Assembly: GCA_020438355.1 (NCBI GenBank)
Contig: JAGQUT010000016.1
Location: 1-43,653, forward strand
DNA length: 43,653 nt
Direction: 5' to 3'
Source of the DNA: Solirubrobacterales bacterium
GTDB lineage: Bacteria; Actinomycetota; Thermoleophilia; Solirubrobacterales; 70-9
Each line of letters starts with the position of its first letter. Position 1 is the stretch's first letter. Of the stretch, positions 4,171 through 12,531 are shown piece by piece. A model generated the notes under the pieces. That model worked only from the letters and a program-made list of their open reading frames with translations. It had not been told where the DNA came from and did no database searches. Position numbers and translations under genes: made by a program.

Positions 4171-5136
4171 CTACCCGGAAGTCTGCGGGGGGGCTTTCTT
4201 TGCTCCCTTGGGGATCAGGGTTGGCTCTCCCCTCTCTGGAAACGGGATCTCCACTACGTCGAAGTCACGGGGGGCGAAGGTCTCCGGGAACACCTCGCGG
4301 GCTTCCTCGAGGGCCTTGCCGACGTGGTATCGGGAGGAAATGTGAACCAGGGCGAGCATCTTCACGCCAGCTTCCGCTGCGACTTCGGCAGCCTCCACCC
4401 CGGTCGAATGTCCGGTCTCCCTCGCACGCTCCTGATCCTCGACCATGAAGCTAGCGTCGTGCACCAGAAGGTCGGCTTCCCTGGCTGCTTCTATCGTTGC
4501 CCGGCAAGGGCCCGTGTCACCGGTGATCGCGACCGCACGTCCCAGACGGTCCTCCCCCATCACCTGGTCAGGTCGGACCTTGCCGTCCGTTCCGTCGACG
4601 ATCTCGCCGTCCTGCAGCGCCTTGAATGACGGGCCTGGCGCCACGCCCAGCCGCTCGGCCTCTTCCGGATCGAACCGCCCGGGGCGATCGTCTTCCAGCA
4701 TCGCGTAACCGAGGGCCCTGGTCCGGTGTTCCACCGGGAAGGCCTCCATCTCGTAGTCGACGTGGGGAACCACATCTCCGGGTTCGAGTTCTTCAACTTC
4801 GAGATGGAAGCCGAGCCTGCCGATCAGGGGCTGTAGATCCTTCATGAGTTTGTGAAGACCTACCGGCCCGAACAGGAGTAGTGGTTCGTCCCGGTCGTTC
4901 AGGTCATAAGTCTTCAGGAGACCGGGCAGACCAAGACAGTGGTCAAGGTGAAAATGGGTGAGGTAGATCTCGTCAACCTGGACCAGGCCGAGGGAGCGCC
5001 GGAGCTGCCGCTGGGTACCTTCCCCGCAGTCGAACATCAGCTTTTCGCCACCCCGGGTGACCAGCACGCTGGCGGTGCCACGAAGCGCGGTCGGCACCGG
5101 TCCACCGGTTCCCAGGAAGGCTACGGAAAGGTCCAT
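4171..5136 (-). CDS. rnz: Ribonuclease Z (tRNA 3' endonuclease)
   Basis: 321 residues, metallo-beta-lactamase fold. Cuts the 3' trailer from tRNA precursors. The metal site H61-F-H63-L-D65-H66 sits in THFHLDHCLGLPGLL; further family marks are GTGGPVPTALRGTAS at the N-terminus, AITGDTGPC, and the C-terminal LVHISSRY. The frame is open further upstream, but the ATG at 5136 begins exactly at the family's start. A -10 box TAGGCT lies 7 nt before it (5144-5149), so the mRNA is probably leaderless. It is divergent from a tRNA gene without an encoded CCA, which suits an RNase Z substrate. Confidence 0.95.
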   Translation of the reverse strand: MDLSVAFLGTGGPVPTALRGTASVLVTRGGEKLMFDCGEGTQRQLRRSLGLVQVDEIYLTHFHLDHCLGLPGLLKTYDLNDRDEPLLLFGPVGLHKLMKDLQPLIGRLGFHLEVEELEPGDVVPHVDYEMEAFPVEHRTRALGYAMLEDDRPGRFDPEEAERLGVAPGPSFKALQDGEIVDGTDGKVRPDQVMGEDRLGRAVAITGDTGPCRATIEAAREADLLVHDASFMVEDQERARETGHSTGVEAAEVAAEAGVKMLALVHISSRYHVGKALEEAREVFPETFAPRDFDVVEIPFPERGEPTLIPKGAKKAPPQTSG

Positions 5137-10683: not shown

Positions 10684-10956
10684 TCAGCCGCCGGCGACGG
10701 CCGGCAGGATCGTTACTTCGGCTCCATCCGAAACGGGCGTTCCCAGACCATCACCGAAACGAATGTCCTCGCCACCGACGTAGACGTTGACGAAGCGGCG
10801 GAGCTCCCCGTCCTCGGTGATCCGGTCGCGCAGGTCGCCGTGCTCTGCGAAAACCGCATCGAGCACTTCGCCGACGGTCGAGCCCTCGGCGCTGAGGTCA
10901 GCCTGGCCGCCGGTGGTGGCGCGAAGCTGGGTCGGGATCTTCACTGTTACTGCCAT
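10684..10956 (-). CDS. cysO: CysO-type ubiquitin-like sulfur carrier (MoaD/ThiS family)
   Basis: 90 residues ending in the Gly-Gly (VTILPAVAGG) that is adenylated and converted to a thiocarboxylate. The overall wording (VTVKIPTQLRATTGGQ, LRRFVNVYVGGEDIRFGDGL, GAEVTILPAVAGG) is much closer to mycobacterial CysO than to MoaD or ThiS. The diglycine is already the true C-terminus, so no protease trimming is needed. Its ATG overlaps the stop of the threonine-synthase-like gene (TGATG). It is therefore co-translated with that gene and shares its SAM riboswitch. No cysM or mec lies nearby. Confidence 0.93.
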   Translation of the reverse strand: MAVTVKIPTQLRATTGGQADLSAEGSTVGEVLDAVFAEHGDLRDRITEDGELRRFVNVYVGGEDIRFGDGLGTPVSDGAEVTILPAVAGG

Positions 10957-12188
10957 CAGGCGACGACCTCCTGGCCGAATTTGGATTCGAACGAGTCCGG
11001 GTTCGGATCGATCTCGGTAAGGGCAAAACTATCGCGATTCGCGTCGAGGGTCTTCAGCCCCTCGCCCGTTATGTACACGACGACCTTTTCGCCATCGCCC
11101 AGCACTCCCCGCTCGGCCAGCTTCTTCAGGACGCCAACCGTTACACCGCCAGCAGTCTCGGTGAAGATGCCGGTGGTTTCGGCCAGCAGCCTGATTCCTT
11201 CCCGGATCTCGTCATCGGTTACGGCCTCGATCGAGCCGTTGGTTTCGTTGGCCTGGACGACCGCATACGGACCATCGGCGGGATCACCGATCGCGAGGCT
11301 CTTGGCGATCGTGTCCGGCTTCTGCGGCCGGCAGACCCGGGTGCCCTCGGCGAACGCCGTCGCGACCGGCGAGCAGCCTTCGGCCTGGGCCCCGTGGAAC
11401 ACGGGCTGATCACCTTCGACCAGACCAACTTCCTTCCACTCCTGGAAGCCACGGGAGATCTTCGTGAAGAGAGAACCGGAGGCGATCGGAGCCACGACGC
11501 GGTCCGGCAGGCTCCAGCCGAGCTGTTCGACAGTCTCGTAGGCGAGCGTCTTCGAGCCCTCGGCGTAGTACGGACGAAGATTCACGTTGACGAAGGCCCA
11601 CGGTTTCTCGTCAGCGAGCTGGGTACAGAGACGGTTCACATCGTCGTAGTTGCCCTTGACTCCGACCAGATTGGTCCCGTAAATGTCGGTGGCCAGCAGC
11701 TTCTGTTCCTCGAGGTTCGACGGCACGAACACGTACGAGTCGAGCCCGGCGGCCGCCGCATGGGCGGCCACGGCGTTGGCGAGGTTGCCGGTCGAGGCAC
11801 AGGCGACAGTCTCGAAACCGAGCTCCTTCGCCTTGGCAATCGCCACCGCCACCACCCGGTCCTTGAACGAATGGGTCGGGTTCGCCGCATCATTCTTGAT
11901 GAAGATCTCCGCCCCGGTCCCCAGACGCTCCGACAGGCGGTCAGCCTTGATCAGCGGGGTCATTCCGGGCTCGAGCGGGTCCCCGGCCTTGCCCTCGAAG
12001 GGCAGGAAGTCCGAGTACCTCCAGATTCCCAGCGAGCCGGCCTGGATCCGGCGCCGGGTCTCCTCGGGGTTCAGGTCCGAGTAGTCGTACTTGACCTCAA
12101 GCGGTCCGAAGCACTCGGCACAGAAGAAGTTCGCGCCGAGTTCATACTCGGTCGAGCATTCCTTGCATTTCAGGTTCTTTACAGCCAT
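10956..12188 (-). CDS. thrC: Threonine synthase-family PLP enzyme with N-terminal zinc ribbon
   Basis: 410 residues, fold type II PLP enzyme. The N-terminal zinc ribbon has C8-x2-C11 and C23-x2-C26 (KCKECSTEY, FFCAECFGP). The PLP lysine is about K109 in NPTHSFKDRVV, followed by CASTGNLANAVAAHAA and a phosphate-binding region of threonine-synthase type. The annotated reaction would be O-phosphohomoserine to threonine. However, it is controlled by a SAM-I riboswitch and translated with a CysO sulfur carrier, which points to sulfur/methionine metabolism; O-phosphohomoserine plus a sulfur donor giving homocysteine is an inference. The ATG at 12188 was chosen: it precedes the zinc ribbon, with AAAGG upstream. 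Confidence 0.9.
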   Translation of the reverse strand: MAVKNLKCKECSTEYELGANFFCAECFGPLEVKYDYSDLNPEETRRRIQAGSLGIWRYSDFLPFEGKAGDPLEPGMTPLIKADRLSERLGTGAEIFIKNDAANPTHSFKDRVVAVAIAKAKELGFETVACASTGNLANAVAAHAAAAGLDSYVFVPSNLEEQKLLATDIYGTNLVGVKGNYDDVNRLCTQLADEKPWAFVNVNLRPYYAEGSKTLAYETVEQLGWSLPDRVVAPIASGSLFTKISRGFQEWKEVGLVEGDQPVFHGAQAEGCSPVATAFAEGTRVCRPQKPDTIAKSLAIGDPADGPYAVVQANETNGSIEAVTDDEIREGIRLLAETTGIFTETAGGVTVGVLKKLAERGVLGDGEKVVVYITGEGLKTLDANRDSFALTEIDPNPDSFESKFGQEVVA

Positions 12189-12221
12189 CCGATCGTTACC
12201 TTTCGTCACTTCCCTCTCGGG

Positions 12222-12253
12222 AAAACAAAAACCTTCGCCGCGTGGGGCGAAGG
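12222..12253 (-). terminator. Intrinsic terminator of the SAM riboswitch expression platform
   Basis: In minus-strand RNA, CCUUCGCC and GGCGAAGG form a perfect 8-bp stem with a 6-nt loop, followed by UUUUUGUUUU. It ends about 33 nt before the thrC start. The CCCCAC on its 5' side can instead pair with GUGGGG at the 3' side of riboswitch stem P1 (12267-12272), which gives a clear antiterminator alternative: SAM bound, P1 forms, terminator forms, gene off. Confidence 0.92.
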
Positions 12254-12269
12254 CCGATCGGACTTCTCC

Positions 12270-12380
12270 CCACATCTCCCGGCCGTCAAGCCGCTGGATT
12301 TGGCACCTTCTCGGTCGCTTTCGCTTCCGCTGGTTGCCGGGGTTTCATAGGGCCAAGTCCCTCCACCCCTCTGGATGTGG
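12270..12380 (-). promoter_or_regulatory. SAM-I (S-box) riboswitch aptamer upstream of thrC-cysO
   Basis: The minus strand carries the S-box core in order: CCACAUC (P1), CAGAGGGGUGGAGGGA with the kink-turn, GGCCCUAUGAAACCCCGGCAACC cut here by variable joints, GGUGCCAAAUCC, then CGGGAGAUGUGG closing P1 (CCACAUC/GAUGUGG, 7 pairs). These are the near-invariant SAM-I nucleotides. Together with the terminator at 12222-12253 it fills the 343-nt gap between thrC and corA. A possible promoter (TTGTTG at 12406-12411, 17-nt spacer, CATAAA at 12383-12388) lies directly upstream, though its start point would fall within P1. Confidence 0.95.
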
Positions 12381-12531
12381 CGTTTATGTCTGGGCGACAG
12401 GTTACCAACAAGTTCCCGGTCCTCCCTTTGTGGCGTAACGTTTCAGTTACAGGCCGTTTACGCGGTTGTTTGACCTCTGGTCTAGGGTTGTTGCATGCCT
12501 GCGAAGCGAATCGACATGACTGGAGGCGGCG

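What the first reader, a model, noticed from the sequence alone, without database searches (positions are those of the whole stretch)
10684..12411. SAM-I riboswitch controls a threonine-synthase-like enzyme plus CysO: candidate homocysteine-forming module
Seen: a full SAM-I aptamer and terminator, then a PLP enzyme of threonine-synthase type, then a CysO-like carrier with free Gly-Gly, overlapping TGATG. Known: SAM-I riboswitches normally control methionine/sulfur genes; CysO thiocarboxylate supplies sulfur to a PLP enzyme acting on O-phosphoserine in mycobacteria. Inferred: the enzyme may use O-phosphohomoserine and CysO-COSH (or sulfide) to make homocysteine. Alternatively it is ordinary threonine synthase, repressed when methionine is ample. 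Without the riboswitch it would simply be annotated thrC.
Basis: partly seen in the sequence, partly recalled or inferred. Interest (0 to 1): 0.82.

Follow-up and report, generated by a model that had tools for sequence, protein, structure and literature searches.

The report
SAM-controlled homocysteine synthase, MetM/MetO type
An RNA switch that senses S-adenosylmethionine sits in front of an enzyme that looks like threonine synthase but almost certainly makes homocysteine for methionine, using sulfur handed over by a small carrier protein; this pathway was described in Streptomyces in 2024, so here it is a further example in an uncultured actinobacterium.

Summary
A full SAM-I riboswitch (12381-12269, minus strand, 82.6 bits) with an intrinsic terminator and an antiterminator pairing leads a 410-aa threonine-synthase-like PLP enzyme (12188-10956). 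That gene overlaps by one base a 90-aa sulfur carrier ending in PAVAGG (10956-10684). The enzyme belongs with the Streptomyces riboswitch-metM-metO operon (57% identity), not with threonine synthases. In Streptomyces, MetM was reported in 2024 to make homocysteine from O-phosphohomoserine, with thiocarboxylated MetO as sulfur donor, and metM there also carries a SAM riboswitch. Across 199 genomes of the class, 108 of 109 orthologs have SAM-I directly upstream (the exception is cut by a contig end), and 60% of metM genomes have no recognisable MetX. The window's genome also has a separate hom-thrC and thrB, a separate moeZ-cysO-mec-cysM module, and a complete metY-metX pair. So MetM/MetO is an extra, SAM-controlled route here and not the only one. 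New member of a known kind. A side lead is a set of orphan SAM-I aptamers in front of small unknown genes.

The parts
12269..12381 (-). SAM-I riboswitch aptamer (RF00162)
   Evidence: cmscan 82.6 bits, E 3.9e-18, model 1-108 complete
12242..12273 (-). antiterminator pairing: GUGGGG (12273-12268, P1 3' strand) with CCCCAC (12247-12242, terminator 5' arm and loop)
   Evidence: only complement of at least 6 nt between the two regions; MFE of the transcript truncated before the terminator's 3' arm pairs this region
12222..12253 (-). intrinsic terminator: hairpin 12253-12232 (CCTTCGCC/GGCGAAGG) and U tract 12231-12222
   Evidence: hairpin -14.1 kcal/mol, forms in the MFE of the full leader
10956..12188 (-). 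metM: PLP fold-type II threonine-synthase-like homocysteine synthase, 410 aa, N-terminal four-Cys zinc-ribbon-like motif, PLP Lys109
   Evidence: PF00291/TIGR00260; 57% identity to Streptomyces orthologs; tree; diagnostic residues
10684..10956 (-). metO: sulfur carrier protein, 90 aa, free C-terminal Gly-Gly (...PAVAGG)
   Evidence: PF02597 E 2.7e-16, SAMP1/MoaD-like; nearest solved structures 4n6e_B and 3dwg_C; adjacent in 106 of 110 metM loci

Best explanation
This is a MetM/MetO homocysteine-forming operon under SAM-I control. When SAM is scarce, the P1 3' strand pairs with the terminator's 5' side and the operon is transcribed. When SAM is ample, P1 closes, the terminator forms and transcription stops (sequence anatomy shown, switching inferred). 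MetO is adenylated and thiocarboxylated at its C-terminal Gly-Gly, most likely by the genome's only recognised E1-like enzyme, the rhodanese-fused MoeZ on contig C45 (gene shown, reaction inferred). MetM takes O-phosphohomoserine, made by Hom and ThrB, and replaces its phosphate with sulfur from MetO-thiocarboxylate. The MetO-homocysteine adduct is then released to give homocysteine (inferred from the reported Streptomyces MetM/MetO and from mycobacterial CysO/CysM chemistry). Threonine is made by a separate ThrC on C45. In this genus the route runs beside a MetX-MetY route that carries no SAM riboswitch.
For: Riboswitch, terminator and antiterminator. Orthologs at 57% identity in Streptomyces with SAM-I upstream and, in most, a PAVAGG carrier downstream. 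A tree places the protein with those and apart from four structurally solved bacterial ThrCs and the genome's own ThrC by a 100/100 branch. 19 positions are fixed differently in MetM and ThrC, including the PLP phosphate loop ASGS instead of GNAG. SAM-I lies 28-177 nt upstream of 108 of 109 class orthologs and of none of the 8 weaker hits, mostly paralogs. MetO is adjacent in 106 of 110 loci. MetX is not recognised in 66 of 110 metM genomes. The genome has hom-thrC, thrB, and a moeZ-cysO-mec-cysM module. In Nitrospirota the operon is thiF-metM-metO-NIL-thiF-JAMM, near metK-ahcY with a SAM-II element. In a Chloroflexota locus a SAM-II-type aptamer lies in front of metM. Biochemical precedent reported in PMC12172450.
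Against: The genome has a complete metX-metY pair, conserved in the genus, so the route is not strictly needed for homocysteine. TIGR00260 names the protein threonine synthase above its cut-off. The cyanobacterial MetM-like ThrC of Microcystis showed threonine synthase and deaminase activity in vitro and no clear homocysteine synthesis (PMC12172450). The S. albulus MetM sequence itself was not available for comparison.
Confidence: 0.88

Rival explanations
1. An ordinary (second) threonine synthase that the cell represses when SAM and methionine are ample, with the carrier gene there by chance or for another use.
For: TIGR00260 thrC above cut-off; fold and PLP motif shared with ThrC; one MetM-like protein, Microcystis ThrC, has threonine synthase activity in vitro (PMC12172450).
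Against: A canonical ThrC is encoded next to hom. The MetM clade has its own fixed active-site residues. The carrier gene is conserved next to metM across phyla. Repressing threonine synthesis when methionine is ample makes little metabolic sense. MetX is unrecognised in 60% of metM genomes.
Confidence: 0.06
2. A bifunctional enzyme that makes threonine by default and homocysteine when charged MetO or sulfide is present, the riboswitch setting the balance. (Overlaps with the best explanation, which it would modify.)
For: Shared substrate and chemistry; activities reported for the cyanobacterial homolog; MetM retains many ThrC motifs.
Against: Separate ThrC in the genome; MetM-specific replacements in the phosphate loop and in the stretch around residues 203-212.
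Confidence: 0.15
3. A cysteine-forming CysM/CysO-like pair acting on O-phosphoserine.
For: MetO resembles mycobacterial CysO (3dwg_C, E 2.4e-23).
Against: The enzyme matches ThrC and not CysM. The genome has its own cysM with a separate cysO, mec and moeZ, plus a cysK. SAM control fits methionine, not cysteine.
Confidence: 0.02

Closest known systems
MetM/MetO methionine route of Streptomyces albulus (Hasebe et al. 2024, Appl Environ Microbiol 90:e01247-24)
   Same: ThrC-like PLP enzyme followed by a sulfur carrier protein, SAM riboswitch upstream; Streptomyces orthologs 57% identical with the same arrangement
   Different: uncultured Solirubrobacterales host; a MetX-MetY route is also present, whereas many Streptomyces are said to lack the canonical homocysteine genes (own knowledge of that abstract)
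CysO/CysM/Mec/MoeZ cysteine route of Mycobacterium tuberculosis
   Same: carrier thiocarboxylate as sulfur donor to a PLP fold-type II enzyme with a phosphorylated substrate; MetO close to CysO in sequence
   Different: partner enzyme is ThrC-like and the expected product is homocysteine; the genome has a distinct CysO (ending GGA) with its own CysM and Mec
HcyS/HcyD/HcyF with MetY in Wolinella succinogenes (own knowledge: Krishnamoorthy and Begley 2011)
   Same: protein thiocarboxylate as sulfur source for homocysteine
   Different: PLP enzyme is MetY (Cys/Met metabolism family) on O-acetylhomoserine, not ThrC-like
Threonine synthase (ThrC; 1uim, 2d1f, 6cgq, 2zsj)
   Same: fold, PLP lysine, substrate expected to be O-phosphohomoserine
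   Different: 38% identity to the genome's own ThrC, fixed active-site differences, N-terminal zinc-ribbon-like motif, SAM-I control, adjacent carrier

Membership tests
MetM/MetO homocysteine synthase system | ThrC-like PLP fold-type II enzyme with intact PLP lysine | tested here: met
   PF00291 E 3.9e-73; SFKDR motif, Lys109
MetM/MetO homocysteine synthase system | adjacent sulfur carrier with C-terminal Gly-Gly | tested here: met
   ThiS family, ends PAVAGG, 1-nt overlap; conserved in 106/110 loci, three of the others cut by contig ends
MetM/MetO homocysteine synthase system | groups with Streptomyces metM (the ortholog with riboswitch and metO) to the exclusion of ThrC | tested here: met
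   tree, 100/100 branch; 57% against 38% identity
MetM/MetO homocysteine synthase system | SAM riboswitch upstream, as reported for S. albulus metM | tested here: met
MetM/MetO homocysteine synthase system | direct sequence match to S. albulus MetM | not tested
   paper not held; sequence not among fetched loci; other Streptomyces used instead
MetM/MetO homocysteine synthase system | E1-like activating enzyme present to thiocarboxylate the carrier | tested here: met
   single ThiF-domain protein above cut-off, rhodanese-fused MoeB/MoeZ at C45
MetM/MetO homocysteine synthase system | O-phosphohomoserine + MetO-COSH -> homocysteine | not testable with these tools
   needs an enzyme assay
Threonine synthase (ThrC) | NCBIfam TIGR00260 above cut-off | tested here: met
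   290 bits against 167.1; the model also covers MetM, so it does not discriminate
Threonine synthase (ThrC) | residues invariant in bacterial ThrC (GNAGN phosphate loop, SVNPxR...GQKT) | tested here: not met
   19 positions fixed differently, e.g. ASGS, NLRPYYAEGSKT
CysO/CysM system | carrier paired with CysM-type cysteine synthase and Mec | tested here: not met
   that module is elsewhere, about C45:239.9-243.1 kb
SAM-I riboswitch (RF00162) | aptamer above Rfam gathering score with expression platform | tested here: met
   82.6 against 44.4 bits; terminator and antiterminator
SAM-I riboswitch (RF00162) | binds SAM and terminates transcription | not testable with these tools
   needs in-line probing or a transcription assay

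The most novel reading that the evidence does not exclude
In this genus two complete homocysteine routes run side by side with different control: MetX-MetY (O-acetylhomoserine + sulfide) without a SAM riboswitch, and MetM-MetO (O-phosphohomoserine + protein thiocarboxylate) switched off by SAM. The cell would then choose between precursors and sulfur donors instead of using MetM only as a replacement for MetX.
Probability: 0.5. Interest if true: 0.4.

Novelty: new member of a known kind. Interest (0 to 1): 0.32.

Why it matters
Proteins of this type are still called threonine synthase by the standard family models, so pathway predictions for many actinobacteria will show a false thrC and a false methionine gap. 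The class-wide survey shows that the riboswitch-metM-metO arrangement is close to universal among metM genes of the class and often occurs without a recognisable MetX. That gives a simple rule for correct annotation, and it makes the question of why some genera keep both routes testable.

Tried and rejected
The Hasebe paper is not held, so its content is cited through PMC12172450 and, where marked, from memory. Contamination of the MAG as the source of metX-metY was considered and rejected: tetranucleotide make-up of C38, C41 and C45 agrees (correlations about 0.95-0.98), and both other genomes of the genus carry the same metY-metX pair. The long ORF start at 12275 was rejected because it lies in the aptamer. 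A shared-carrier reading (MetO = the genome's CysO) was rejected because a separate cysO-cysM-mec-moeZ module exists. The regex for SAM-I on named loci missed L064, L069 and L080, which Rfam finds, so the Rfam counts are the ones relied on. Searches of viral contigs for the orphan-riboswitch ORFs found nothing. Structure prediction was not run, since fold membership was not in doubt.

Full report
OBSERVATION. The minus strand of the window holds, in order, a complete SAM-I aptamer (12381-12269; 82.6 bits, E 3.9e-18), an intrinsic terminator (12253-12232, -14.1 kcal/mol, then UUUUUGUUUU) and two overlapping genes. The last strand of P1 contains GUGGGG (12273-12268), which is complementary to CCCCAC (12247-12242) in the terminator's 5' arm and loop. 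A transcript cut before the terminator's 3' arm folds with this region paired, and the full leader folds with P1 and the terminator. The first gene has an ORF that opens inside the aptamer at 12275, but the likely start is ATG 12188, giving 410 aa with an N-terminus (LKCKECG) that aligns with relatives. It is a PLP fold-type II enzyme (PF00291, TIGR00260). The second gene starts on the stop codon of the first (TGATG). It is a 90-aa ThiS/MoaD-type carrier with a free Gly-Gly end, nearest among solved structures to 4n6e_B and to mycobacterial CysO 3dwg_C. The divergent corA gene and the downstream sugar-nucleotide genes have no obvious link.

WHAT IT IS. The same triplet was described in Streptomyces albulus as metM-metO (Hasebe et al. 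2024). That paper is not held. PMC12172450 reports that MetM is a homocysteine synthase converting O-phosphohomoserine, that metO belongs to the sulfur carrier family, and that S. albulus metM has an upstream SAM riboswitch. From my own knowledge of the abstract, MetO-thiocarboxylate is the sulfur donor and many Streptomyces lack the canonical genes. Among 80 named loci the best are Solirubrobacterales (94-97% identity), so the window comes from that order. Streptomyces and Kitasatospora orthologs are 56-58% identical. Rfam confirms SAM-I just upstream in Streptomyces, Kitasatospora, Solirubrobacter, Acidimicrobiia, Dehalococcoidia and other loci. A MetO homolog follows metM directly in 106 of 110 loci; three of the other four are cut by contig ends and the fourth has it about 2 kb away. 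A maximum-likelihood tree puts the window protein with the Streptomyces MetM proteins, separated by a 100/100 branch from the ThrCs of B. subtilis, Aquifex, Thermus and M. tuberculosis and from the genome's own ThrC (organism names of these structures other than Arabidopsis are from my own knowledge of the PDB entries). Five zinc-ribbon paralogs fall on long branches inside the MetM side and their exact place is unsure. Nineteen positions are fixed one way in the 30 MetM rows (at most one exception each) and another way in all eight ThrC rows, among them the PLP phosphate loop (ASGS against GNAG) and the stretch NLRPYYAEGSKT against SVNPYRIEGQKT.

CLASS-WIDE TEST. Among 199 genomes of the class, 109 have a strong ortholog (over 400 bits; two of these are split genes whose matched pieces I counted as one). 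In 108 of them an RF00162 match lies 28-177 nt upstream on the same strand; the exception begins 8 nt from a contig end. None of eight weaker hits (seven of them paralogs, one a contig-end fragment of an ortholog) has one. Such linkage is not chance: 108 of the 150 listed SAM-I matches in the whole class lie in front of metM. MetX (E below 1e-40, plus two weaker fragments) is found in 44 of the 110 metM genomes (the 109 plus the contig-end fragment) and not in 66, so metM often occurs where the MetX route is not recognised. MetA was tested in the window's genome only (absent). Incomplete MAGs and relatedness of genomes weaken the count, so the Fisher test should be taken as descriptive.

THE WINDOW'S OWN GENOME. 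It has a canonical hom-thrC pair with a thrB-like kinase nearby on C45 (thrB read from its GHMP-kinase motif, not from a profile), so threonine does not depend on the window gene and O-phosphohomoserine should be available. It has exactly one ThiF-type protein above the cut-off, a rhodanese-fused MoeZ, next to a second carrier (cysO, ending GGA), a JAMM protease (mec) and cysM. The thiocarboxylate machinery is therefore present, and MetO is a separate carrier from CysO. It also has metY and metX side by side on C38. Their composition matches the rest and the same pair is in both other genomes of the genus, so contamination is unlikely. No SAM riboswitch precedes them. Taken over the class, the proposal is favoured.

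INDEPENDENT SUPPORT. In a Nitrospirota locus (L090) the operon reads thiF-metM-metO-NIL domain-thiF-JAMM and lies within 4 kb of metK and ahcY, which are led by a SAM-II element (domain names from sequence reading, not from a profile search). In a Chloroflexota locus (L082) the element in front of metM is a different class, a SAM-II-type aptamer at 37.0 bits against a cut-off of 36. If real, this is convergent placement of metM under SAM control.

MECHANISM. Shown: anatomy, orthology, co-occurrence, presence of the partner enzymes. Inferred: SAM-dependent termination, thiocarboxylation of MetO by MoeZ, replacement of phosphate on O-phosphohomoserine by MetO sulfur, and release of homocysteine. 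The main remaining doubt is how specific MetM is: a cyanobacterial relative showed threonine synthase and deaminase activities and no clear homocysteine (PMC12172450), so partial bifunctionality is not excluded.

VERDICT. The new parts are the extension to this order with near-universal riboswitch linkage, and the coexistence of two homocysteine routes of which only one carries a SAM-I element.

Noticed in passing
G000 contig C122:21287-21197(-) (L006:1591-1501) and C63:2456-2357(-) (L007:1600-1501): Two further SAM-I aptamers (65.3 and 60.7 bits) sit directly in front of small ORFs with no Pfam or PHROG match (a 91+97 aa look-alike pair; a 139 aa protein with CxxC motifs). The Shine-Dalgarno sequence lies in the P1 3' strand (GAUGGAAGG / GAUGGAGGU), pointing to translational control of genes with no known tie to methionine.
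   Followed up: partly
L177:4077-4177 and 4488-4594 (+); L180:4818-4933 (+); L181:5610-5701 (+); L183:5374-5284 (-): Relatives carry similar orphan SAM-I aptamers in front of unrelated small ORFs, one case in tandem, with the same scaffold as the metH leaders in L178, L179 and L182. Possibly metH leaders reused elsewhere; unexplained.
   Followed up: partly
L082:4847-4922 (+): In a Chloroflexota locus the metM ortholog is preceded by a SAM-II-type (SAM_alpha) aptamer instead of SAM-I; score only just above the cut-off (37.0 against 36).
   Followed up: partly
L090:440-8035 (+): Nitrospirota locus with metK, ahcY, then thiF-metM-metO-NIL domain protein-thiF-JAMM; here MetO ends GGSR, so the Gly-Gly would need trimming, perhaps by the JAMM protease.
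   Followed up: partly
L171:5104-5379 (+), contig C45: The genome's own CysO ends in ...MAGGA, one residue past Gly-Gly, with a JAMM protease and cysM nearby, whereas the window's MetO ends in free Gly-Gly.
   Followed up: partly
L188, L189, L190, L193, L194: A few genomes of the class have a second zinc-ribbon ThrC-like paralog (41-48% identical to MetM) without riboswitch; function unknown.
   Followed up: partly
G142:C3:17206-18370 and G085:C1:2108650-2109830: metM appears split into two reading frames in these two genomes although the riboswitch upstream is intact; sequencing error or recent decay.
   Followed up: no
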